A DNA stretch of 64,000 nucleotides. Source: Aurantiochytrium sp. KH105. Lineage: Eukaryota; Sar; Bigyra; Thraustochytrida; Thraustochytriidae. Positions 5,227 through 56,690 of this stretch are shown here, piece by piece. Each line of letters opens with the position of its first letter. Within the stretch, counting starts at the first letter, position 1. The stretch lies in assembly GCA_003116975.1 (NCBI GenBank), contig BGKB01000019.1, forward strand, positions 558,001 to 622,000, written 5' to 3'. Below the pieces are notes generated by a model. It was not told where the DNA came from, did not search any database, and worked only from the letters and a program-made list of their open reading frames with translations. The position numbers and the translations under genes were made by a program.

Positions 5227-8200
5227 ATGGTCGCGGGCTCCCAGCGACGCCTCACGCGAGGGCTGACAGACCTGCGCCTCTCCGAGCTCCGAGAGGATGG
5301 AGACCATGTTGAGGCTGTGCAGCAGCTCGAGCGTCTCGAGAAGACGACCATGTTTCTCAACGTGGGCATGGTCCCGCAGCTGAAAATTGAGGTGCTCTCG
5401 TCTCGATCGCTCGACATGGTATGGCTGACGATGGGTCTCGTGGCGCTCTTCACTCTCATTGCCTCGTCCGTCTCTTTGGCAACGATTGGCATTGGATCCG
5501 AGGATGGGGACATCGACACCCAAGTTGCCGTCGTGTGTCTGTCGGGGACCGTGCACGTCGTGACGGCCGTCATTGTGGTTTTTGTTGTAGTTGCGTACCC
5601 ACAACGCATCATTCGCAAGCTCGTCGTTCCCGGAAACTCGAAGCCGCTCCCGGAGCAGTTACTTGTGGTTGGCGTGGTGCTTTTCCTCTTTGGAAGCCCA
5701 ATCACCTCATTCTGGGGCGCTGGCTGGTTTTGGGTGTCGACGCGGAAAGCTCTCGAGGAGAACCCATCGAGTGATTTTCTCCTTCACAAACTCAGCTTTG
5801 ACAGTATGCACTCACTCAAGCTCCTGTCCCTCGTTAGTGCCGTCATGTCTTACATGTGTATTGCCATGTTCGGCGTTCTTGCAGAGCTCACGCGCGTGAT
5901 CTTACGCTCTGCAGAGATGTCCTTTGCTTCAGCAGATACCGAGCAGCATTACGAAGACTCTTTTCATCGTGCACAAGCGTCGGAAAACGGCACACAGACT
6001 CACACGCAGAATCAGACGCAGACGCAGACGCAGACGCAGATGCAGACGCAGCCACTTGGGAAACAACCAAGTGAACTATCCGAAGGAGCGTCTGTACAAT
6101 CATCAGAGCCAACCGGCGGGCCAAGCGAGCCGATTGCTCGCATGAAGACGCGGCAGAAACGACCTGGACCGAGACGCGATAGTGCAGAGCGGTCCGAGGT
6201 GTACTCTGAGGGGGGAAATGGATTCTCCCCCTTTGGTCTCGAGGCTGTTGTGCAACGAATGCGAAGACTCCTGGAGAAACAGCTCTGGGATGAGCGAGGC
6301 TATAAGGAATTGCTCTACATGTCGAAGCTCGGCTTTTTCAATGTTTCATTGGCAATAGCGCTCGTCATCTTCAATTCCATTTATGCCACGCGCTTGAATG
6401 TTATCTCCAACGTAGTTCCGCTGATGGGAATCATTACGGTAATTCGCGTCTGCACGTCCGAAGGGTCCCCTTGCGCGGACGAAGGCGTGTTTTCTCGGGC
6501 TGTGGGCGCGGGCGTCATTTTCTTGTTAGAGTTCGGCCTGTTGTTCTCGTATTCGCGGCTTCTACAGCGCGCCAAACGCGCGCTTTGGCGCGTGCCATAT
6601 TCGGTGACGCGTCCGCAGCAGGTGAGCTTTTTGTTTTATGCGCTGCAGTCTTTGCTTCTCTGCTCGCTGATTGGATTCCTGGGCATACTCGTTGTGTCCA
6701 TAACAAGTGTGGACTTTTGGCTGTACAGGCCGATTCGCAACGCGCAAGACGAATTTGAGCTCGTGTATGATCCACTCTACCAAGTTGGACTTACTGGAGC
6801 CTCGATATCGATCAACTACTATGGTTTTTACCTCGTTATCTCATCCTCCCTCATGGCCATGGCGTATCTTCCTGCAGACTCGGTGGGCGTCCGCGGCTGT
6901 TTTTGCCCAATGTCTCGCCCTGTGCGACAGCGCGAAACGAAAGAGCTCCGGCGCGCGCGCTCGCAAATGTCTGGCGCCGATCTGGATATTGGTGACTCGT
7001 TGGCGCGCTTGTCAGCGCTTGGCAAGGCGCACGAGACCTCTGCTGCACTCACAGAGCAACAGAAAGAGAACGCACTTCTCTTTTTCAGGGAGCGTCTCGT
7101 CGTGCGTCGCAATTTGCGTCTCGAGGACCAAGAGCGACCAGTGTACATAATGTCAGAGGAAGGGGCGCGCAAGATACAGCACGTGGTCCCGCTTCTTGCG
7201 CTGACGCGGTTAGGCACGGAGGTTTCCTCGACCTCGTCGCGCAGGTTGCGCAACCTCGAAGTGTCCGAGTCATGGCGTGAACTAGCTTCCATGGCCCGTG
7301 CAGAAATTGTGGGCGAGCCTTCGATCGTCACCACGGTTCGCGATCTCAACGTCATGATTTTGGAGACGGAAATTCTTGCCTTTAACTTTACGGTCGTCAC
7401 CTACTTTCTCGGGCGTAAGCGGGGAGAAATGAGCTTTGAGGAGGAGGCTGCTCTCATCGAGTCTCCGGCATTCTCGCTGGAGGAGCACATTATCGACGAC
7501 GATATTGACACGCATTGTCTCGTGGCCAGCAGTGACGACCGCGTCTTTGTCGCTTTTCGCGGCACAGCATCCGAAGCCAATGCACGAACGGACTTGGCCA
7601 TGCAATTGGTGCCATGGGACCTGGCCAACGACGTTGAGCTCGTCAACGACCTGCAAAACGCCCAAGAGTCACTTTTCGCCAAACGCGGGCTCACTGCGCA
7701 CGTCCATCGCGGTTTTCTTGAAGCCTATGGGCGGATTCGAGACCAGATTCGCGCCCATATTGAACGACTGGCTGTGGATGAGTACGGGAATCAGATTCGG
7801 GCAGTCTTTTGCACGGGGCATTCCCTTGGCGCAGGACTCGCGACGCTTTGCGCCTTTGACCTCGGCGCGCTATTGCGCAAGCGAACAAACCGTGTTGACG
7901 TGGCGATTGCGTGCACGACGTTTGGCTCCCCTCGCTGCGGAAACTTTGTCTTTCGATCGCGATACAATTTGCTCGTGCCCAAGACAAATCGGTTCGTCAA
8001 TGCAGGCGACATCATTCCCAAAGGCCCTCCACGGAATCTCTTGCGGGCTCTTACACTAAAAGGCTATCGGCACGTCGGTCGGCAGGTGCTCATGGATGGT
8101 AATGGGCGCTTCATCATCAGTCCTTCCCGTATTGAGCGTTTTTTGCAACACGGGAACCTTTTCTATGGCAACAAGCCCAAGTCGCACACGACTATGCGCT

Positions 8201-8650
8201 ATGCATACAGTCTGCTTCTTTGGTGCATCATGGCGCACTACCGCGTTTTTGATCCGGATCTCTGGCACGTGCATATGGAAACCATCGATTCTATTGGCCG
8301 TTCGCGCAAGCAATACATGAACGCCGTGGTTCGCGAACGATACAATGAAGTGATTCGAAACAAGGGCTTTCGCTACCGAGTGGGGCGCACGGAAGTTCGT
8401 GATATGGGAATGCAAACCGAGATTTCTCAAGACGGAGATGAATTTCCTGCTCAGGCCTTGCTCGACCAATTTCGCCGCATTGCTCAAGTCAACCCCAATG
8501 ATCCTAGCGTACGCTCGGTGCTTGACCGGATGCATCACGTCATTGATCACATAGACCATCGAGACACAACTCACAATGACAATGATGACGAAGTCACTGA
8601 CACGGAAGAGGAGTTGGCGGAGGAGGAGGAGGTGGAGGAAGATGATGATC

Positions 8651-8688
<38 letters not shown>

Positions 8689-8901
8689 GACCACTTTGCC
8701 GAAACATCGCAAGAAGCAGCATACGGACACGAGCGGGACAACAACTGCACCGACAAGGGCGATTCGGAGGACCATGTCGGGGCCTCTAGCTCGCCTTTTT
8801 TTGTGTCGCCCGATCACGCATCAGCCGTGCAACATCCTTTCAAGCAGCACAAACGCGACAACAACCAAGACGACGACGCGCTGCATCTCGACATCGTGTA
8901 A
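5227..8901 (+). CDS. Polytopic class-3 lipase, sn1-diacylglycerol-lipase-like
   Basis: A 1,224-aa membrane protein. The N-terminal two-thirds carries about eight or nine hydrophobic segments (for example MGLVALFTLIASSVSLATIG and LLVVGVVLFLFG), split by a soluble loop containing a Gln/Thr repeat (TQTQTQTQ). The C-terminal lipase_3 domain has the nucleophile elbow GHSLGAG with Ser866, a following acidic residue in NAGDIIP, and a His in GYRHVG. These form a plausible Ser-Asp-His triad. Animal DAG lipases (DAGLA/DAGLB) share four transmembrane segments plus this catalytic domain and release 2-acylglycerols; here the membrane part is about twice as large. After the lipase domain comes an acidic tail with a 12-Gln run encoded by CAA repeats (8650-8690). 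The ATG at 5227 is chosen because the frame upstream to 4999 contains only a TTG. Confidence 0.8.
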
Positions 8902-18793: not shown

Positions 18794-19984
18794 CTAAGGG
18801 TCAGCACCACCCAGCTGGATACGGAGAGCCTCTTCCTCGGTGAGCGGCGGCAATCGACCAAAAGTGGCAGGAACGTTGTCCATGTACTCAACAATGGTCT
18901 CTGGCATGCCGGGCGACGATCTGACGTCGGTGTGCCGGGTCGTGGGCTCGGCGGGCGCAGCAGAAGTGCCGGAGGCACCGCTGCCGCTCTCGGCGTAGCC
19001 AGCGGCGCTACCGCTATTTGCGGGCAGAATGCCCATCTCCTTGTCGATCACATCGCGCTTGCCGTAGCGAAAGTGAATCATGGGCTGCTTGAGCGGTTCA
19101 AGGTTGTCGTCGTGGCTGCTCTGCTGTGATGATGGTGCACTCGAGGTGTCCTCGCCGCTCGGGTTGGGCGTAGCGTCCGCGGCGCCTGACTTGGGCGCAG
19201 CGGCGCCATCGCCCGGCTGGATCTTGGCGATGGGCTGGTCCGTGTGCACGGTGTCCTCAACCTTGGCCAGCTGCTCCGTGAGCGTGCCAGCGACGGGCGA
19301 GCGAATATCCACGGCGACCTTGTCGGTCTCGATGACGCAAATGACCTCGTCCACCTCGACGCTGTCACCGGGCTGCTTGATCCACTCAACGAGGTCGCCC
19401 TGCGTTACGGCCTCGCCCATGGCCGGCACGGGCACGGTAACGGGCTCCTGATCTGCGGCGGGCGCCTTGGGCGCCTCCTTGGCGGGTTCCTCGTCCTTTT
19501 TGTCGGCACCCGAGGAAGCCTTGGGCGAGGAGGCGGCAGCGTCTCCGAGCTCGATCTCGGCAATGGGTTGGTCCGTGTTGACAGTGTCCTCAACATTGGC
19601 CAGCTGCTTTGTGAGTGTGCCTGCGGCGGGCGAGCGGATGTCCACGGCGACCTTGTCGGTCTCGATGACGCAAATGACCTCGTCCACCTCGACGCTGTCG
19701 CCGGGCTGCTTGAGCCACTCGACAATATCTCCCTGCGTCACAGCTTCGCCCATGGCCGGCACGGGGACCGTCACGGACTCCAGCTGCAGCCCGGATGCCC
19801 TGAATCCCCGGATGGACGCCGCCATCGCGCCCGCATGCCTCTGCATCATCGCGGGCGCTGCATCCCCGGCGACGCCAAGCACGGATACGCGTCCTCCCAG
19901 GTGCGTCGCGGCAGCCTTGTTGTTCCTGGCCACGCTCAGCGCCAGCGCCCTCGCCGGGCTCGCCTTGACGCACCTCGCCAGCAT
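18794..19984 (-). CDS. Mitochondrial double-lipoyl protein fused to a KGD4/MRPS36-like domain
   Basis: A 396-aa protein with three visible parts. Residues 1-65 are Ala/Arg-rich without acids, like a mitochondrial targeting peptide. Two lipoyl domains follow (about 70-148 and 181-258), each with the lipoylation motif ETDKVAV; the acceptor lysines are Lys111 and Lys222. This motif resembles the 2-oxoglutarate dehydrogenase E2 (DLST). After a Ser/Ala/Pro linker, residues 297-396 contain PMIHF..GKRD and, at the C-terminus, VPATFGRLPPLTEEEALRIQLGGADP-like sequence (only key residues matter: PA.F.R.P....E...I..GGA). This resembles KGD4/MRPS36, the adaptor that recruits E3 to the OGDH complex. The E2 catalytic core and the peripheral-subunit-binding domain are absent. 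The likely role is an E3-binding, lipoyl-bearing accessory subunit. The start is the ATG at 19984. Confidence 0.82.
   Translation of the reverse strand: MLARCVKASPARALALSVARNNKAAATHLGGRVSVLGVAGDAAPAMMQRHAGAMAASIRGFRASGLQLESVTVPVPAMGEAVTQGDIVEWLKQPGDSVEVDEVICVIETDKVAVDIRSPAAGTLTKQLANVEDTVNTDQPIAEIELGDAAASSPKASSGADKKDEEPAKEAPKAPAADQEPVTVPVPAMGEAVTQGDLVEWIKQPGDSVEVDEVICVIETDKVAVDIRSPVAGTLTEQLAKVEDTVHTDQPIAKIQPGDGAAAPKSGAADATPNPSGEDTSSAPSSQQSSHDDNLEPLKQPMIHFRYGKRDVIDKEMGILPANSGSAAGYAESGSGASGTSAAPAEPTTRHTDVRSSPGMPETIVEYMDNVPATFGRLPPLTEEEALRIQLGGADP
19222..19442 (-). repeat. Second lipoyl-domain repeat unit (DNA-level duplicate)
   Basis: Nearly identical to 19553-19773; the core coding for PGDSVEVDEVICVIETDKVA is almost base-for-base the same. 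This implies a recent duplication or ongoing gene conversion within the gene. Confidence 0.8.
19553..19773 (-). repeat. First lipoyl-domain repeat unit (DNA-level duplicate)
   Basis: Partner of the unit at 19222-19442. The two units are separated by a divergent Lys/Pro/Ala linker-coding stretch. Confidence 0.8.
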
Positions 19985-38919: not shown

Positions 38920-41900
38920 TCATGCAATAGCTAGGAATTCGCAATATTGGTCCGCCGAAGACGTGAAGCTTCCCGGAAAGCTTTGCGTCGAGCACTCGAG
39001 CTCGTCAGCATCATTGCGAACAATGTAGGACCAAATGTTGCCTTGACCGAATCGTACGAGGCCAGAGCCAGGAACATCAACCACTTCACCCCGCTTTCCA
39101 AGACGCTGGAAATCATCGGCGAGATCACCAGAGCTCGCCATTGCGGAAAGCTGTGCAAAGGAACAAACACGTTCGCCGCGAGGAGTGGAAGGCGCAGGGT
39201 CGTAGCCAATCACGCCAGGGCTGCAGACAAAGGTGGTTGTTTCGGAGAAAATGGTAAAACCATAGTCTTCTCCGCTGCCAAAACGAAGAACGCCCGCCCC
39301 ATCAGTGGTGCAAGCCTCGCCTTCGTTGCACAAGACAGAGCCAAAGTCAGTTACGTCGTGCGTCGGCGGCTGCGTGGGGAAGGGTGTCGGCGCATCGGTA
39401 GCGAGCTCACACTGGAGAGCAATGGTTTCGGAGGATCCGCAATTATGTGTACTGAAGAAGGAGCACTGGCTGAGCGCTGACTCTGAGCCAGTGCAATCAA
39501 CGTTATCCATGAAGAAACTGTTGGTACCAGTCACGCTGGTGTAGGTTCCGCCAGCGAGACCCATGCTACGGCATGCGACGGCAGCGGCATTGTCATCAAA
39601 GTAATCGTCGCACACTTGACCAAAGGTCGCGCCCCCGTCAAAAGAGACGAGCAACGTTCCGCTAAGAGCGCCCTCGGCAGCATCGGCGAATTTAGCAACA
39701 AAGCGAATTGCTTCCTCTTCGCAGGAGAGCATTGCATGTCCAGAAGCAGTGTCGGGGCTGTAGCTCGCCGAACCGCATGAGGTGCCGGAGACAAGGGTGC
39801 ACTCCGCCAAAGAGGCTTCATCTCCATTGCATTGGATGCTTTGCGTTGATAGGGCAAGGCCGTCGGGAACATAGGCAAAGTAGTTGCTCAAATCCATGAG
39901 ACTGCTCGAGGCAAAGCCCATTGACTTGCACGCAACGTCTCGCGATTTGTAGTCAAGACCAGCGGCGCAGACCGTGCCCCACTCGCGATTGTCGTCTAGG
40001 ACCTCGAGCACACCAGGATTGGCGTACACCAACCGCGCGCTCGGCCCCGAGGCGATCACCGTGCGCGGAGTTTCCGTGGGTTGCGGTGTCGGAGGCGGCG
40101 CTGTGGGCGACGCCGTAGGGTTTGGCGTATCGTTGGTGCACTCAAGATACGCATACCTGGCGCACTGGACATGAACACTGAAGGCGCATTCGAGCAAATT
40201 TGTGGCTAACCCGTCGCAGGAGGGGTTGCCAAATCCGTACGTCGACGAGGAAGCACTTGAGCTCAATGGTGGGTCATACTCTCTCGAAACGCCGGTAAAT
40301 CCCATGCTCGCGCAGGCCACCTTTCTCGCTGTCTCGCCCAGAGCACTGTATGAGCTTAAGCAGATTGGGCTCCATTCTCCGCCGCGGTACATGACCTCGA
40401 GGCGGCCGACGTTTTTGTCGAAACCAGAGACCCAGTGAAGACGCGTGCGGAGTCCAGAGGCAATGATATTGCCCGCACCAGAGGGATCGGAAGGCGCCGT
40501 GACAGGAGCCCGCGTTGGAGTTTTCGTATCAAAGCACTCCACGACCGCAGGCCGGGACGGTTCTCCATAGTAGTAGTTACCGTAGGCGCTATGCTGGTCG
40601 TCGTACTCACAGTCGTGAAGCGCCGATTCGCCTCCGCGGCAATAAAAAATGGGCGAGTAGCGTTCAAACTTTTTCGGAACGTCCGGCATTTCTGTCTGCA
40701 GATCCCAGCGCAGTGCGCCGTCAGCATATCCGACCTCACGGCAGGCCACGGCAGCTTCGACGTCACCAAAGTCCGCGTTCACGCGGAGAACCTTGAACTT
40801 GCGCGAATTGGGTGGCTTGACAAAGATAAAGCCCGGGTTCGAGTAAATCAGTCTGGCCGTGCTCGATTTTTTGATGACCTTATTGGCAAACTTGGGCTTT
40901 CGCGTGGGTTTTGGTGTTGGTGCAATTTGCAAAAGCGACGTGGGAACCTCGTTGCTGTCGACACCATCGAGAACGTAGGACTCGATCCAGTCAACAAAGG
41001 TGGAAACGCGCGTGTAGACGCCGTAGGCTTTGGGCGCGGCGCACCCGTAGCCCCAGGACACGATGCCAGCGAGATATTGGTTGCCGACACCGCCGTCACG
41101 AAAGAGTGGGCCGCCGCTGTCGCCCTGGCAAGAGTCCTTGCCGCCCTTTTCGTAGCCGGCGCAGATCATGGTCTTTTTATCAATCTCACTCTTCTCGTAA
41201 ATGCCCTTGACGCAGTCCTTGTAAGGAACAAAGGGGACGTCTACTTTACGCAGAAGGATTGATTCAGAGTAGTACGTAATGTAGTTAATTCCGTAGCCGT
41301 AGAGATCACGCTCCCCGTCGACGTCTAAGAGATCTCCACCCTTGGCGTTGCCCTTGTTATTTGTTGCGACTGCATTTTCATCGTTGGAGCCTTCGGCGGC
41401 GCGTCGAAGATTGCGGTTGTCCTTTGAGGAGGCGGTGTCCGTGGTGTTCTCGGACATTTTTTTGCCAAAGTAGCCGTCGGTGCTTCCGTAACCAGCAACG
41501 GTGAGGAGCATGCCCTTTTCCTCGAGCTTGGCCGCCTCACGGAAGTTGACCGGCTGGACGTCCACAATGTCGCGACTGAGACGAAGGAGAGCAAGATCAT
41601 TCACGTTGGTGTTGGAGTCGTACTCTGGGTGCACGATGATGTCGACTACATCGCGTACCTGACGGGTCTCTTCGACAGAGGCGTCAAGGTCGGTCTCGCC
41701 GAGGATGATGCGCACTCCCGCACGCGTTTGGCCAGCCGCAAGTGGCCCGGGAAGAACAATCGAGTCGACGCAGTGCGCCGCGGTGAGGACCCAGCCCGGT
41801 GCGATAAGGTTCCCGCCACAAATATGACCGTACTCAAGGTCGGGCCCGGATCCGGTTTGAAGACTCACGATCCAGGGAATGGTGTCCGTTTCGGTCTCTT

Positions 41901-42048
41901 GGCCGCCCACGATGTTCAAGACTCCGCTGCCGAAGTCTTCGACTTGGTCGGGCGTCGCGAGGTCGGCCTCGTCCGCATTCGCGGGCGCAACCGCCAGCAC
42001 CATTGCCAGGACCGCCAGGCCCTTGACCACCTTGTTCATCTTGGCCAT
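38920..42048 (-). CDS. Secreted trypsin-like serine protease with SRCR domains
   Basis: A 1,042-aa predicted secreted protein. The ATG at 42048 gives a clean signal peptide (KMNKVVKGLAVLAMVLAVAP, cleavage near ANADEA); the frame upstream to 42471 has no ATG before it. The S1 protease domain begins with IVGG at residue 46 after a short propeptide and has the full triad: His92 in TAAHC, Asp151 in NDLALL and Ser311 in GDSGGP. A Gly/Asn-rich insert lies between about 205 and 250. Four SRCR-like modules follow, each with (R/K)..V.C...G..., separated by Thr/Pro linkers such as PTASPTAPPPTPQPTETP, which look O-glycosylated. A Cys-containing C-terminal module of unknown fold ends the protein. Trypsin-SRCR combinations are best known from animals. 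Its role may be extracellular digestion or recognition. Confidence 0.85.
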   Translation of the reverse strand: MAKMNKVVKGLAVLAMVLAVAPANADEADLATPDQVEDFGSGVLNIVGGQETETDTIPWIVSLQTGSGPDLEYGHICGGNLIAPGWVLTAAHCVDSIVLPGPLAAGQTRAGVRIILGETDLDASVEETRQVRDVVDIIVHPEYDSNTNVNDLALLRLSRDIVDVQPVNFREAAKLEEKGMLLTVAGYGSTDGYFGKKMSENTTDTASSKDNRNLRRAAEGSNDENAVATNNKGNAKGGDLLDVDGERDLYGYGINYITYYSESILLRKVDVPFVPYKDCVKGIYEKSEIDKKTMICAGYEKGGKDSCQGDSGGPLFRDGGVGNQYLAGIVSWGYGCAAPKAYGVYTRVSTFVDWIESYVLDGVDSNEVPTSLLQIAPTPKPTRKPKFANKVIKKSSTARLIYSNPGFIFVKPPNSRKFKVLRVNADFGDVEAAVACREVGYADGALRWDLQTEMPDVPKKFERYSPIFYCRGGESALHDCEYDDQHSAYGNYYYGEPSRPAVVECFDTKTPTRAPVTAPSDPSGAGNIIASGLRTRLHWVSGFDKNVGRLEVMYRGGEWSPICLSSYSALGETARKVACASMGFTGVSREYDPPLSSSASSSTYGFGNPSCDGLATNLLECAFSVHVQCARYAYLECTNDTPNPTASPTAPPPTPQPTETPRTVIASGPSARLVYANPGVLEVLDDNREWGTVCAAGLDYKSRDVACKSMGFASSSLMDLSNYFAYVPDGLALSTQSIQCNGDEASLAECTLVSGTSCGSASYSPDTASGHAMLSCEEEAIRFVAKFADAAEGALSGTLLVSFDGGATFGQVCDDYFDDNAAAVACRSMGLAGGTYTSVTGTNSFFMDNVDCTGSESALSQCSFFSTHNCGSSETIALQCELATDAPTPFPTQPPTHDVTDFGSVLCNEGEACTTDGAGVLRFGSGEDYGFTIFSETTTFVCSPGVIGYDPAPSTPRGERVCSFAQLSAMASSGDLADDFQRLGKRGEVVDVPGSGLVRFGQGNIWSYIVRNDADELECSTQSFPGSFTSSADQYCEFLAIA

Positions 42049-50912: not shown

Positions 50913-53900
50913 ATGGAGACAGCCGCGAGGGATGATCTGCGCGGGTCCAGGGCGCTCACGCAGCGTCTGAACCGCGCGGGAGCCAATGCGCTCCTTCGCT
51001 CGCTGCTCATCGACTTGCGTCTTTACGCCCGTCCAGGAGAAGACCTTGTGCGCTTCATGTGGACGTGGTTTGCCAAGGGCAGGACCGTCGCCTTGCAGGG
51101 CCGAGAGCGTCGTAGCGCTGCCGCCGCTGCGCTCGACGAGGGCCTCCGGGAAACCACGGCTCCCATCCTGCAGGATCTCTTGGCTGCTCTTCTTCGCACG
51201 GATCCTGAAGACGCAGCTGCCTTTGTCGCTGACCTCCTGTACAAGCGACTCTGCGCAGCAGGCGTCGGGGGTGTTACAGTCGTACAATGCAAAGAATGCC
51301 GAGTTGTATCGCATCTGAGCCTGCGACGTGGCGTTTTCGAGAGCTCGAGTGCGTTTCCGAGCTCTGAGAGCGAGTACAGACATTTGCTGCAGACCTTGCT
51401 CGCAAGCTATGATGATGCTGAGGACCTTGCAGAGAACCTCGTGCAGCAGGTAATCCGGGGCGTTCCGGCCGTTGACATTCCTTCGCCCAGCAACGACGAC
51501 GCGCAAGCGTGCTCAGGCCCTTTTGTTGTGGCTTGTGACACGTGTGCACACATTTGCAGCTGGAAGCCTCTTGCAAACGCGAGTGCATTCGCATCAAAAA
51601 CTCTTGAAAATGGCGAGGATAAAGACGCACAATTTCAAATTGAGGTCGAATGGACGAGTGTACCTGCTGTGCTACGGGATCAAAGAAAGGAGATCGAAGG
51701 CATGATACCACATCTGTTTTCAAGTGCCGCGCGCGTCGAGCTCGAGGTGCTTGCGGGCGGTTACTCTTCCGCCTTTGTGTTCAAGTGTCGGTCGTGGTGC
51801 TCCGAAGGTCGAGAGGAGGAGCAGAGCGTGGTGAAAATTGACGATGAAGAAAAACTGCATAGCGAGGTGGCGCGCATGGAAACTGCTGCGCCCTATCTGG
51901 GCGATAGCGCGCCAACTGTGCTGGCTTATACGCGTCGAAAGACAACCGCGGGTGTGCGCATCCAGCTGTGCGGGGCTTGCTGGACCTTGCCGCGCTTCAT
52001 CAAGGAGAACTCGACCCTTATTCTTACCCTCAAGTCGCTCTATGCGATGCAGTACAAGGACCAGCGCGTCTTGCAATCAAAGTCTGCTTATCCCTCGCGG
52101 GAGTCCATGATGCGAATCATGCAGCCACCTCGAAGCGACGAACGGTCGCCAAGGCGCGATGAAGGCTTTAAAGATCGCAGCCGAGGGACACGAGTTGACA
52201 CCACGCAAGAGACAGCCTTGCTGTCTCGTCGGCCCTCTTCAGGTCGACACTTTGTGACAGATTTTGAGGATCTCTTGTCTATGGTTTTTGGCGAAGTCAT
52301 GGCCAAATGCTATGAAGATTCGAAGCGCAAAGCGCACGTCGACCTGGTGGAATTGTACGATTTGCGTTCCAAGATGCAGCGTGGTATCTTTGATCAATTG
52401 GACCTTTTGCGAGCACTGGAGCTGGATCGACTTGGTTTGGATCGCGCTCGCCTGGGTACGGCAGAGGACATTGCTCGATTTTTCGCGGGCTTTTTGCGCC
52501 AGGTCGATGGGCGCGACATGGTCAACCTTGCGCTTCAGCACAATGATCTGAATGGAAACAACGTTCTTGTGGATGCCATGGGCATGGCTTGGGTGATTGA
52601 TTTTGCGGACTTTGAAGAAAGTCACATCGTTCGGGATTTGGCCAAGCTTGAAACCTGCCTCATGTTTGAGTATACGCCTCTGGTCGACTCGGTGAGCGTG
52701 TCCCGCGCTTTGCAGTTTTGGCGTGCGCGACTGCCCCTGCAAGGCCTGGAGCCGCTCTTTGTGGCCGTGGGTAGGTTGCGTCAGTTTGTGGCAGATCTCA
52801 CGGAAAACGCGGGTCGTTCTTCGCAGCATGCTTTTGCCTTGCTCGCGTACACGCTGGATGTCTTGCGCTACCCGGATGTGAGCGTCGCAAGCAAGCTGTG
52901 GGCGCTGCAATCATGCATTCTTCGCGCGCAGGAAATCCTTGCGGACCAATCGCCAGCGCCCGCGGCGCTCTACGCAGAGCTACATTCAACGCAGGGGCTC
53001 GATCTCGAGGGCGTGGAGACCCGTTATCTAGCGGGCTGTCGTCTCAAACACGCCTACTACACGGACGCTGTAACGTGCGAGCGTCTGCCCATCTCACCGA
53101 GGCTGGCTCTGGCATACAATGCGACAGTGTGCATGCCAGAGAATGTTGTTTCGGAGCGACTGGAAGAGGACTTTGATCGCGTTTTTCTTTTACGCGAAGA
53201 TGTAGAGGATGGCAGTTTGTGCGGCCGCTTGGCCATCTTTGGCAACAGTGGCATGGGCAAGACCTTGCTCGTCTCACTGCTGGTGACTCGCCTCGTCGCG
53301 CTTACCAATCTAGTTCCTTATGTGGTGAATGCCGTGGAGTTGGCACAAACTTGCACTCGACTCGCGAGTCCCGGTGAACAAGGCGAGGAGGATCTGCTTG
53401 ACGCCTTTTGGTCGGCAAAGTATGGAAGCCGCGCGCTGCGCACTGCAATGCTTCGTCGTGCGCGAGCACAGGGTCGGCTTGTGATCGTCTGTGATGGACT
53501 TAGCCAGGCTGCTGGATCGTGGGAGGTGTTACTGCGCCGTCTCGTGGCGCTCTCGCGACCTTTGCTCGAGGAGACAGAGTCAGAGGCGCCAGCTTCGACG
53601 GACGGGACGGACTCGACGGACTCAACGGACGATGGGATGTCTTCTGGCATGGAGGCAGATGAAACGAAGCCCCGGTCAGCTGCTACACGACAAGGTATGA
53701 CCGAAGTCCTTGATGAGGGCGGAGAGATGTCCTCAAATGGCTCGCGAGAGCACGAAAGACTTGGGGAAGTGCGGCTTGTGCTTGCGACGCGTCCTTTGAA
53801 CGACCAAATTCAGCAAGCTGTGGAAGGCGCGGGATTTATTCGATGCCACTTGCAACCCCTCGAGGAGAAGCACATTTTGGCCTTTGCGGAAACATACATG

Positions 53901-56690
53901 CATCGTGCACCACCACGACTTGTTGCAGACGCGCTGCGACGAGATCATCGTCTATGCCAGGACACGCTTCAAGTGTCTTTGCTGCTGACGTCGATTTTGG
54001 AGACGACGGCCCAGGTCAAAGGCCAAGAAGAGAAGACTGGGGAAAGGGACGAAGAGGAGGAAGAAAAGATGGCCGATTCCCCGGACGAAGCCGATGAGGA
54101 AGGTAAGATAGCCGATCGGTGGAAAAAGGTGCACAGATCGCGAAGCTCCATTGAGCAACTCTTCTCGGCGCTGATTGACCATAATCTCGCGCCACTGCGG
54201 CTCCCGCTGCTCGAGCAGACTTCATTGAAACGGATTCTTGCAAAGGTGAGCTTTGACGTGCAAGTATCGGGCCAAGCGGGGTCCTTTTTCTCGATGAAGT
54301 CGCTCTTGGATGCTACGGGATCAGAGCTGGATTTCGAGGGCGGAAAATACTGGATCGGCGCAGCTCGTAGTGACGTAGGGGAGGGTGCGGGTGCTGGAAC
54401 GGCACGATTGTTGTCCACGAGTACGTTTGCACGTGCGTTGAATGCTCTCTTTGAGTCCGTGCATATGGATGCACATCCATTGCTGCGCTGCAGAGACCGA
54501 GCGCAGCCCGTGCTGGTGCGGGAGTACGCCATTGAAAGCGCGAATGCACAGGCGTACCTTGCGGCCTCGTACGCTGTTGCCTCTTGCAGAGGGCGGGAAG
54601 ACTTGGAGCAATTAATGCGAAGGCTGTTGCAACAGCCGAATTGTGTGGGCGATCGGGTGGCCAAGGCTCTTGATGCCGCACTGCGGGACGTGACACGGTT
54701 TCTCGTCAGCGATCGCGTCCGAGAAGACGTCGAAGCATTGGAGACAGAGGTGCAGAGACGACTCGGGGGTGGCGAACGTTTTCAGCGAGTGGGTCTGCTC
54801 GTTGAAAGTCTGCTCGCGCGGGTCAAGAATCCTCGCAACAGGGCCAATCTGCGGCGAGTCTCTGATCTCTATGAGCAGTGGGAGATCTCGGCTTTGCTGA
54901 GCGTGGTGGAGAGCAATTTGGCCTTTTTGGCATTTCTGGTGGAAATGTTGCCGATTGATTTACGCGAAGTTCTCGTCAACGAGGTAATGGCTCCCGAAGT
55001 ACGGGATGAGCTGCTCTGCATGAGCGCTGGATCGACTCAATTCGCGGCAAGCGTGGTACCGGCTCTTGTGTGCGGGAGAAGTGGGCCTGTGGCCAAGGGC
55101 CTTGCCGTGTCTGCTTGCACGCAAAGTCCACGAACGGGCTGGAGTGTGCTCATGCACTGCGCGGCCTCGTGCCAGGAAGCTGATGTGCTTCGGATGCTGC
55201 TGGCATGTGGCGCAAATGTGGACGATAGTCCGGAGCGAGCGCGAGGTCTCACGGCGCTGCACGAGGCGTGTCGGTCGGGAACAGTCGAGACCGTGCGCGT
55301 GCTTGTGGACGAAGGTGGCGCGCGCGTGAACCAAGCGACTCGTACGGGATTAACGCCGCTATTGGTGGCATGCAATGCGCGACGCGCGGATATTGCGGCA
55401 TTCCTGATCTCTCGTGGAGCCCTTTTAGATGCGACGACAGAGTCTGGGCTCACGGCCGGATACTATGCTGCTAAACGGGGTTGCATACAGGTGCTCACTG
55501 TGCTGGCCGAGGCAGAGGTGGACTCTGGCAAGGCAGAAAATGTGTCGACGTATTTGCGTGAGCATCGCGTGCACGTGCGCTATGGATCGCGAGAAGAGCA
55601 TTTGACGTTGCTGGGCACGGCTGTGAAATGGGGACGCCCCGGGCTAACGCAGTGGCTGTTGGCGCACGGCGCGGATCCGGACGTGCCGATTGAGATATGC
55701 AAGCATGAGATCTTGCCGGTGTGGCTGGCGGCCAAAATGAACGGGCTTCGCTCGGTACGATATCTATCGGAGGCTGGGTGTCGATTCGATGTGTGTGACT
55801 CGCGGACTGGGTGTACGCCGCTGTTGGTAGCATGTCTGTACGGTCGCAGTCGCGTGGTGGATTTTCTATTGAGCCTTTCTGAGGAGCACGGCGTGGACGT
55901 GTGCGCGCGCTCGACGCATGGCGAGTCGTGTCTCGAACTGGCGCTGCGACGTCCCTTTGTGAATGTCACACGCGTATTGGTGGAGCGTGCAGATCTTTGT
56001 GGCCGGGCCTTTCTCGACGCCGTGGGCCCAGCGCTGACAAAGCTGTCCCAGAGCGCGCAGCAGGCGAGTAAGGCATTGAGCGTGCTGCGTTTGGTCTTTG
56101 AGAGCCGCGTCTTGGGTCCTCGCGCGCGGGATTCGAAGGATGTCCTTGCCCTTTGCGTGCGCAACTTTGCCGCGCATGATAATGTTCCGGCCCTCGAATT
56201 TCTGGTGACGAGAGTGCCCCAATTGCGTGAGGACGGACGACTTGTGAGCGTGATGCTTCCCGTCGTGTTGCGGGCGCGAAACTTGGGTCTGGCGCGACGA
56301 CTCGTGGAGGGGGTTGCAGAGGAAGAGATTCAGGAGGATGCAACAACAGCCCAGCTCCGCAGTGCGTTGATGAAGGATGGTATCGATGACGACACTGAAG
56401 AAGGACTTTCTCTTCGTGTGGACTGTGGTACTGGGGAGCTTGAGAATGCCATCGATGGCTACCTTGCCGCGCATGCCGTGGCTTCGCCCTTTGTGCTCTC
56501 GGATGGAGGAAGCGGCGAAAAGAAGAGTAGCAGGACGCGCAAGAAGAAGATGAAGACAAAGACGAAGACGAAGACGTTTTCGAAAGGGCCGTTGCCTATA
56601 GACGACGACCTTGACGACCGCGACAACGCCACGTCAACAGCGGCGTTCGAGGACGATGGTGGTAGTGGTCAGCAGTCACGAAAGAAGTAA
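50913..56690 (+). CDS. APH-like kinase / NACHT NTPase / ankyrin-repeat protein (NLR-like STAND protein)
   Basis: A 1,925-aa single-exon protein. Residues 1-285 have no recognised domain but carry CKEC and CDTCAHIC cysteine pairs. Residues about 287-700 form an aminoglycoside-phosphotransferase-like kinase: Gly loop GGYSSA, a candidate ATP lysine in SVVKID, catalytic loop QHNDLNGNNVLVD (His543, Asp545, Asn550), metal site VIDFADF (Asp563) and the following VRDLAKLE. This is the pattern of phosphotransferase-like domains attached to bacterial STAND proteins. A NACHT NTPase follows: P-loop GNSGMGKT (777-784), Walker B VIVCDGL (Asp861), sensor VLATRP, then a helical arm (LQPLEEKHILAFAETYM). A mostly helical region leads to about eight ankyrin repeats (about 1406-1730), for example GLTALHEACRSG. 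The end is Lys-rich. Ligand-gated oligomerisation is expected by family; the trigger and output are unknown. Confidence 0.85.
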   Translation: METAARDDLRGSRALTQRLNRAGANALLRSLLIDLRLYARPGEDLVRFMWTWFAKGRTVALQGRERRSAAAAALDEGLRETTAPILQDLLAALLRTDPEDAAAFVADLLYKRLCAAGVGGVTVVQCKECRVVSHLSLRRGVFESSSAFPSSESEYRHLLQTLLASYDDAEDLAENLVQQVIRGVPAVDIPSPSNDDAQACSGPFVVACDTCAHICSWKPLANASAFASKTLENGEDKDAQFQIEVEWTSVPAVLRDQRKEIEGMIPHLFSSAARVELEVLAGGYSSAFVFKCRSWCSEGREEEQSVVKIDDEEKLHSEVARMETAAPYLGDSAPTVLAYTRRKTTAGVRIQLCGACWTLPRFIKENSTLILTLKSLYAMQYKDQRVLQSKSAYPSRESMMRIMQPPRSDERSPRRDEGFKDRSRGTRVDTTQETALLSRRPSSGRHFVTDFEDLLSMVFGEVMAKCYEDSKRKAHVDLVELYDLRSKMQRGIFDQLDLLRALELDRLGLDRARLGTAEDIARFFAGFLRQVDGRDMVNLALQHNDLNGNNVLVDAMGMAWVIDFADFEESHIVRDLAKLETCLMFEYTPLVDSVSVSRALQFWRARLPLQGLEPLFVAVGRLRQFVADLTENAGRSSQHAFALLAYTLDVLRYPDVSVASKLWALQSCILRAQEILADQSPAPAALYAELHSTQGLDLEGVETRYLAGCRLKHAYYTDAVTCERLPISPRLALAYNATVCMPENVVSERLEEDFDRVFLLREDVEDGSLCGRLAIFGNSGMGKTLLVSLLVTRLVALTNLVPYVVNAVELAQTCTRLASPGEQGEEDLLDAFWSAKYGSRALRTAMLRRARAQGRLVIVCDGLSQAAGSWEVLLRRLVALSRPLLEETESEAPASTDGTDSTDSTDDGMSSGMEADETKPRSAATRQGMTEVLDEGGEMSSNGSREHERLGEVRLVLATRPLNDQIQQAVEGAGFIRCHLQPLEEKHILAFAETYMHRAPPRLVADALRRDHRLCQDTLQVSLLLTSILETTAQVKGQEEKTGERDEEEEEKMADSPDEADEEGKIADRWKKVHRSRSSIEQLFSALIDHNLAPLRLPLLEQTSLKRILAKVSFDVQVSGQAGSFFSMKSLLDATGSELDFEGGKYWIGAARSDVGEGAGAGTARLLSTSTFARALNALFESVHMDAHPLLRCRDRAQPVLVREYAIESANAQAYLAASYAVASCRGREDLEQLMRRLLQQPNCVGDRVAKALDAALRDVTRFLVSDRVREDVEALETEVQRRLGGGERFQRVGLLVESLLARVKNPRNRANLRRVSDLYEQWEISALLSVVESNLAFLAFLVEMLPIDLREVLVNEVMAPEVRDELLCMSAGSTQFAASVVPALVCGRSGPVAKGLAVSACTQSPRTGWSVLMHCAASCQEADVLRMLLACGANVDDSPERARGLTALHEACRSGTVETVRVLVDEGGARVNQATRTGLTPLLVACNARRADIAAFLISRGALLDATTESGLTAGYYAAKRGCIQVLTVLAEAEVDSGKAENVSTYLREHRVHVRYGSREEHLTLLGTAVKWGRPGLTQWLLAHGADPDVPIEICKHEILPVWLAAKMNGLRSVRYLSEAGCRFDVCDSRTGCTPLLVACLYGRSRVVDFLLSLSEEHGVDVCARSTHGESCLELALRRPFVNVTRVLVERADLCGRAFLDAVGPALTKLSQSAQQASKALSVLRLVFESRVLGPRARDSKDVLALCVRNFAAHDNVPALEFLVTRVPQLREDGRLVSVMLPVVLRARNLGLARRLVEGVAEEEIQEDATTAQLRSALMKDGIDDDTEEGLSLRVDCGTGELENAIDGYLAAHAVASPFVLSDGGSGEKKSSRTRKKKMKTKTKTKTFSKGPLPIDDDLDDRDNATSTAAFEDDGGSGQQSRKK

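What the first reader, a model, noticed from the sequence alone, without database searches (positions are those of the whole stretch)
18794..19984. Two lipoyl domains fused to a KGD4/MRPS36-like E3-adaptor: a possible core-less E3-binding subunit of the OGDH complex
The protein has a mitochondrial presequence, two ETDKVAV lipoyl domains and a C-terminus with PMI.F...R and PA.F.R.P....E...I..GGA, the KGD4/MRPS36 pattern. KGD4 is known as the adaptor tying E3 to the 2-oxoglutarate dehydrogenase core, and normally lacks lipoyl domains. Here the swinging arms and the E3 adaptor are on one chain with no acyltransferase core, functionally recalling the PDH E3-binding protein. This would be an alternative architecture of a central metabolic complex.
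Basis: partly seen in the sequence, partly recalled or inferred. Interest (0 to 1): 0.88.

Follow-up and report, generated by a model that had tools for sequence, protein, structure and literature searches.

The report
Lipoyl-bearing KGD4-like adaptor of OGDH complex
In a single-celled eukaryote, the small protein thought to dock the enzyme E3 onto a central energy-metabolism complex appears to be fused to two lipoyl "swinging arm" domains, an arrangement the papers we looked at do not mention.

Summary
Window 18794-19984 (minus strand) is one intact 396-aa frame: basic presequence, two lipoyl domains (Lys111, Lys222), 105-aa tail. Two haplotype copies carry it; codon changes show purifying selection, tail included. 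The lipoyl domains are nearer to E2o-type domains than to this genome's E2p or E2b. The genome also has a full-length E2o with its own lipoyl domain and core but no detectable E3-binding domain.

Pfam's KGD4 model (PF10937) does not match the tail. Its last block does match yeast Kgd4 and mouse Mrps36, at the same place near the C-terminus (exact chance 2e-8 to 6e-8 per protein end; 0 of 60,000 shuffles; 0 of 674 natural ORF ends). The upstream P-M-I-x-F motif is present but weak alone.

Best reading: a KGD4-family adaptor carrying two E2o-type swinging arms, its C-terminal block docking on the E2o core and PMIxF on E3. It is core-less like an E3-binding protein, but adds arms to E2o's own rather than replacing them. 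No stand-alone KGD4 was found, but those searches have little power. Binding, lipoylation and taxonomic spread are untested. New variant of a known kind.

The parts
18794..19984 (-). Whole coding frame, 396 aa: presequence, lipoyl domain 1, lipoyl domain 2, KGD4-like tail
   Evidence: translation; second copy on contig C185; purifying selection
19793..19984 (-). Putative mitochondrial presequence, residues 1-64 (end taken as RGFRAS by eye)
   Evidence: 9 K/R, 1 D/E; cleavage site inferred
19553..19771 (-). Lipoyl domain 1, residues 72-144, lipoyl Lys111 (19652-19654)
19220..19438 (-). Lipoyl domain 2, residues 183-255, lipoyl Lys222 (19319-19321)
   Evidence: 88% identical to domain 1
19112..19219 (-). 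Low-complexity linker, residues 256-291
   Evidence: 3 nonsynonymous changes between the two copies
19046..19096 (-). KGD4 N-terminal motif region, residues 297-313 (PMIHF at 301-305); expected E3 contact by analogy
   Evidence: weak alone; role inferred from PMC9974300
18797..18904 (-). KGD4 C-terminal block, residues 361-396; expected E2o-core contact by analogy
   Evidence: role inferred from PMC9974300

Best explanation
[quoted passage not shown] Its C-terminal block would sit on the E2o core, its PMIxF motif would hold E3, and its two lipoylated arms would be extra swinging arms next to the bound E3: loaded with succinyl by E1o, unloaded by E2o active sites, re-oxidised by the tethered E3. 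Shown here: the intact frame, the two lipoyl domains with ETDKV lysines, the second copy under purifying selection, the family resemblance of the tail by block test, and a separate E2o without a detectable E3-binding domain. Inferred: mitochondrial import, lipoylation, binding to E2o and E3, participation in catalysis.
For: Frame and domains. Lipoyl domains E2o-like: best NCBIfam models are sucB TIGR01347 (E 2.5e-44, N-terminal part only, below its whole-protein cut-off) and PRK05704 (2.7e-44); 44-48% identity to PDB 9njt E2o and 46-47% to Ruegeria OdhB, against 24-31% to own E2p, E2b and E3BP-like domains. Tail: block score 42.5, 0 of 60,000 shuffles, 0 of 674 natural ORF ends with best 25, exact P 1.5e-8 to 5.8e-8 per C-terminus, 2e-4 to 9e-4 expected over an assumed 15,000 genes; Smith-Waterman to mouse Mrps36 64 (z 6.8, 1 of 20,000 shuffles), the same as yeast-mouse 61 (z 6.8, 1 of 20,000). 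Selection on the tail: 1 of 8 codon changes nonsynonymous. E2o (C8/C132) passes sucB cut-off, 483 against 378.65 bits, with lipoyl domain and core but no E3_binding match, so an adaptor is needed as in other eukaryotes (PMC9974300 sections read). Two E1 genes of the OGDH type are present as two pairs of loci.
Against: PF10937 does not match. BLASTP with yeast Kgd4 is not significant (E 11), 109 of 20,000 shuffles do as well by Smith-Waterman; a two-sequence profile gives only 6.6 bits, 9 of 20,000 shuffles do as well. A Gumbel fit to the block-test shuffles gives a weaker 6.7e-5. Without the C-terminal anchor a block this good is expected 0.6 to 2.2 times by chance in the whole six-frame genome, and a genome search with mouse Mrps36 does not list this gene while listing 8 other places (E 0.02 to 2.8), six of which score higher by Smith-Waterman, 71-80 against 64. 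The best outside match of lipoyl domain 1 by identity is a PDB chain named as a pyruvate dehydrogenase E2 (9y7v_D, 51%). E2o keeps its own arm. One report cited in PMC8146983 (passages) found no gain of OGDHc activity on co-expressing MRPS36.
Confidence: 0.7

Rival explanations
1. The tail is KGD4 as proposed, but the lipoyl domains are mainly anchors or tethers: unloaded lipoyl domains dock to E1o or E3 and raise local concentration, with little part in acyl transfer.
For: PMC10203282 (passages) proposes a structural anchor role for extra lipoyl domains of E2o; E2o here has its own arm.
Against: Both lysine motifs are intact and neither domain has a nonsynonymous change between the two copies, 0 of 5 and 0 of 4.
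Confidence: 0.15
2. The tail is not KGD4; the protein is an accessory lipoyl carrier (for OGDH, or a lipoate store) whose C-terminus resembles KGD4 by convergence or chance.
For: No PF10937 match; weak N-terminal motif; no relatives outside the genome to confirm the tail: the 4 bacterial loci found match only within residues 61-275, none in viral contigs.
Against: Exact P of the anchored C-terminal block 1.5e-8 to 5.8e-8 in a protein of the very pathway; order of the two motifs as in KGD4; tail under purifying selection.
Confidence: 0.12
3. Annotation artefact: the lipoyl part and the tail belong to different transcripts.
For: No transcript data were available.
Against: One open frame without stop or length change in both copies, with low nonsynonymous share on both sides.
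Confidence: 0.03

Closest known systems
KGD4 / MRPS36 / Ymr31 (Pfam PF10937; called E3BPo in Chaetomium thermophilum, PMC10203282 passages)
   Same: PMIxF motif followed by a C-terminal block with P..F/Y.R..P....E...I..GG near the C-terminus
   Different: Two lipoyl domains in front; one-residue insertion in the block; no match to the Pfam model
E2o / DLST / SucB (TIGR01347)
   Same: Lipoyl domains of E2o type
   Different: Two domains instead of one, no acyltransferase core; the genome has a separate E2o
PDH E3-binding protein (mammalian PDHX, yeast Pdx1; recalled)
   Same: Lipoyl domain plus an E3-recruiting part on a chain without acyltransferase activity
   Different: No E3_binding domain PF02817 here; a KGD4-like tail in its place; OGDH-type lipoyl domains
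Actinobacterial OdhA, which uses lipoyl domains of another chain (recalled; PMC10415282 seen only as a listing)
   Same: Arms supplied in trans to a 2-oxoglutarate dehydrogenase
   Different: Other organisms, other subunits; here E2o keeps its own arm

Membership tests
KGD4/MRPS36 (PF10937) | Match to the curated profile above 22 bits | tested here: not met
KGD4/MRPS36 (PF10937) | Conserved C-terminal block close to the C-terminus | tested here: met
KGD4/MRPS36 (PF10937) | Conserved N-terminal P[LM]IxF motif upstream of it | tested here: inconclusive
   Motif present, in the right order; alone not significant
KGD4/MRPS36 (PF10937) | Small single-part protein without lipoyl domains | tested here: not met
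   Two PF00364 domains
KGD4/MRPS36 (PF10937) | Binds E2o core by C-terminus and E3 by N-terminus | not testable with these tools
   Known for mammals and yeast from PMC9974300
E2o / DLST | Acyltransferase core PF00198 | tested here: not met
   Absent in this protein; present in C8/C132
PDH E3BP | E3_binding domain PF02817 | tested here: not met
   No match in this protein nor at its loci

The most novel reading that the evidence does not exclude
A new subunit class of the OGDH complex in which the E3 adaptor itself carries catalytic swinging arms, so that arm number and E3 number are coupled on one chain and part of the lipoyl work has moved from E2o (whose own lipoyl domain is unusually diverged, 30-33% identical to these) to the adaptor.
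Probability: 0.35. Interest if true: 0.8.

Novelty: new variant of a known kind. Interest (0 to 1): 0.62.

Why it matters
How E3 is recruited to the eukaryotic OGDH complex was settled only recently, with KGD4/MRPS36 as a small adaptor replacing the lost E3-binding domain of E2o (PMC9974300). A lineage in which that adaptor carries E2o-type arms would be a natural experiment on why arms and E3 must be kept together. It would tell whether arms may act in trans, and would show that OGDH and PDH complexes arrived separately at a core-less, arm-bearing E3 tether.

Tried and rejected
Pfam and PDB sequence searches with the tail: no KGD4. PDB searches with yeast Kgd4 and mouse Mrps36 found no solved relative. 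Stand-alone KGD4 in the genome: PF10937 (0 of 14 controls ring, so uninformative), yeast query (nothing), tail query (the two copies plus one chance match, E 2.55, in a frame overlapping a Myb-like ORF), mouse query (8 places, E 0.02 to 2.8, this gene not among them). I aligned 6 of those 8; by eye none ends in the GG[AP] block, so they were taken as chance. Relatives elsewhere: viral contigs, none; bacterial and archaeal contigs, 4 loci that match only the lipoyl part. The lipoyl-domain tree leaves the deeper grouping open (5 of 10 inner branches). Idea that this is an artefact of two joined genes: rejected on the two copies. No structure was predicted: all 11 requests were answered busy.

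Literature: searches; I looked at the listed rows only (15 of 15, 20 of 46, 20 of 238, 20 of 702, 40 of 133, 15 of 377). No listed title or abstract start mentions a lipoyl-KGD4 fusion. This does not show that it is not in print.

Full report
What is there. The window lies in an unnamed eukaryotic genome of 76,034,492 bases in 367 contigs, which seems to hold two haplotypes: genes come in pairs of near-equal score, and the window matches contig C185 at 93% over 4242 aligned positions around this gene. Matches to a PUFA-synthase model (PfaA, best 930 bits, under its cut-off of 1010; the same model also rings in 11 of 14 bacterial and archaeal controls, none over the cut-off) with another long frame facing it on the same contig suggest a thraustochytrid; that arrangement is recalled and the organism is not proven.

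The gene. 18794-19984 on the minus strand is one frame of 396 aa. Pfam finds two Biotin_lipoyl stretches, with lipoyl lysines 111 and 222. The two domains are 88% identical in protein. The first 64 residues have 9 K/R and 1 D/E. The copy on C185 is 98% identical. Of 28 changed codons 7 are nonsynonymous (expected share 0.69, P 2.7e-6): 0 of 5 in domain 1, 0 of 4 in domain 2, 1 of 8 in the last 105 residues.

What the lipoyl domains are. NCBIfam's best models for the protein are sucB (TIGR01347, E 2.5e-44) and PRK05704 (2.7e-44), both covering only the N-terminal lipoyl part. Identity is 44-48% to a PDB E2o (9njt), 43% to the E2o of 7q5q, 46-47% to Ruegeria OdhB, 46-51% to the first domain of 9y7v (a chain named pyruvate dehydrogenase E2), and 24-31% to this genome's E2p, E3BP-like, coreless and E2b domains. 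To this genome's own E2o domain it is 30-33%. In that tree of 13 rows the pairing of the two domains is supported (97/96), while their place among E2o domains is open (87/97), and the own E2o domain is a long branch. In PDB searches by domain 1 the first domain of 9y7v and 9njt score alike (63.8 and 63.9 bits). So E2o-type is the best reading, but it rests on resemblance, not on a resolved tree.

What the tail is. Side by side the tail shows, in the same order, P-M-I-x-F and a C-terminal block. Scored against the two family members, the block reaches 42.5; none of 60,000 shuffles of the tail does (best 36.0; best anchored 29.5), while a Gumbel fit to the same shuffles gives 6.7e-5. None of 674 natural ORF ends of the window and of the loci then held does (best 25). 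An exact calculation gives 1.5e-8 to 5.8e-8 for a block anchored at the C-terminus, thus 2e-4 to 9e-4 over an assumed 15,000 genes; without the anchor 0.6 to 2.2 such blocks would be expected in all six frames of the genome. The N-terminal motif alone is weak (2752 of 60,000; 30 of 674). Pairwise, the tail is as close to mouse Mrps36 as yeast Kgd4 is (Smith-Waterman 64 and 61, both z 6.8 and 1 of 20,000 shuffles; BLASTP 2e-4, and 2e-6). It is not close to yeast (41, z 3.7, 109 of 20,000; BLASTP E 11). A two-sequence profile gave 6.6 bits with 9 of 20,000 shuffles as good. A genome search with mouse Mrps36 lists 8 other places and not this gene; the six I aligned score 71-80 by Smith-Waterman but by eye lack the C-terminal block. 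The family assignment therefore rests on the placed block, the motif order and the pathway context, not on a database-level hit.

The rest of the machinery. Acyltransferase cores: 8 matches, read as 4 pairs. C8/C132 is E2o (sucB 483 bits, cut-off 378.65) with one lipoyl domain and no E3_binding match. C1/C246 is E2p-like (TIGR01349 443.1 bits, cut-off 445) and C39/C29 I read as E2b; both have E3_binding domains over the cut-off. C96/C147 is E3BP-like: E2p-type, ADRRVVDD where a DHRxxDG motif is expected (recalled), E3_binding below the cut-off. Two pairs of OGDH-type E1 loci are present. C17/C36 is a second core-less lipoyl protein, of E2p type.

How it would work. In mammals the N-terminal residues of MRPS36 cross-link to E3 and the C-terminal residues to E2o, in agreement with yeast; eukaryotic E2o lacks the E3-binding domain (PMC9974300, sections 2.1-2.4 read). 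Carrying this over, the C-terminal block would hold the chain on the E2o core, the PMIxF region would hold E3, and the two arms at the N-terminus would swing beside the bound E3. With 4 to 6 adaptors per 24 E2o (PMC10203282 passages; PMC9974300 model) this would add 8 to 12 arms to 24; that number is an inference from other organisms. Against a central role, PMC8146983 (passages) cites a study in which adding MRPS36 did not raise activity in human cell lysates.

What it is not shown to be. Lipoylation, import, binding and expression are untested. Whether a stand-alone KGD4 also exists is open: tail-like copies are absent at close range, but no search able to find a diverged KGD4 in this genome had a working positive control. 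The taxonomic spread is unknown: no eukaryote collection was available, viral contigs gave nothing and bacterial contigs only lipoyl matches.

Verdict. A core-less, arm-bearing KGD4-like adaptor of the OGDH complex is the best reading (0.7). It works like an E3-binding protein. As a member of KGD4 it meets the C-terminal block, has the weak N-terminal motif, and fails the Pfam profile and the single-part build, so I file it as a variant of that kind rather than a plain member. Papers: named sections of PMC9974300; passages of PMC10203282, PMC8146983, PMC7050145 and PMC12221091; Heublein 2014 was not held and is known to me only as cited.

Noticed in passing
G000 C17:547374-547592 and C36:407731-407949 (loci L019, L020): A second core-less lipoyl protein: one E2p-type lipoyl domain (62-64% to own E2p and E3BP-like domains), no E3_binding match and no core, ending in a short unassigned tail.
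   Followed up: partly
G000 C96 and C147 (loci L005, L006): E3BP-like E2p paralogue with ADRRVVDD where a DHRxxDG motif is expected (recalled) and only a weak E3_binding match.
   Followed up: partly
G000 C8 and C132 (loci L001, L002): The lipoyl domain of the genome's own E2o is unusually diverged (long branch; 30-33% to the lipoyl domains of this finding, 41-42% to PDB E2o domains).
   Followed up: partly
window 50913-56690 (+): 1925-aa frame with TCAD9 and weak APH phosphotransferase-like matches, an AAA-type ATPase match and ankyrin repeats, an architecture that recalls NLR-like proteins.
   Followed up: no
window 38920-42048 (-): 1042-aa frame with a trypsin domain followed by scavenger-receptor cysteine-rich (SRCR) domains.
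   Followed up: no
window 5227-8901 (+): 1224-aa frame with a class 3 lipase domain behind what look like membrane segments (for the lipase; membrane segments by eye).
   Followed up: no
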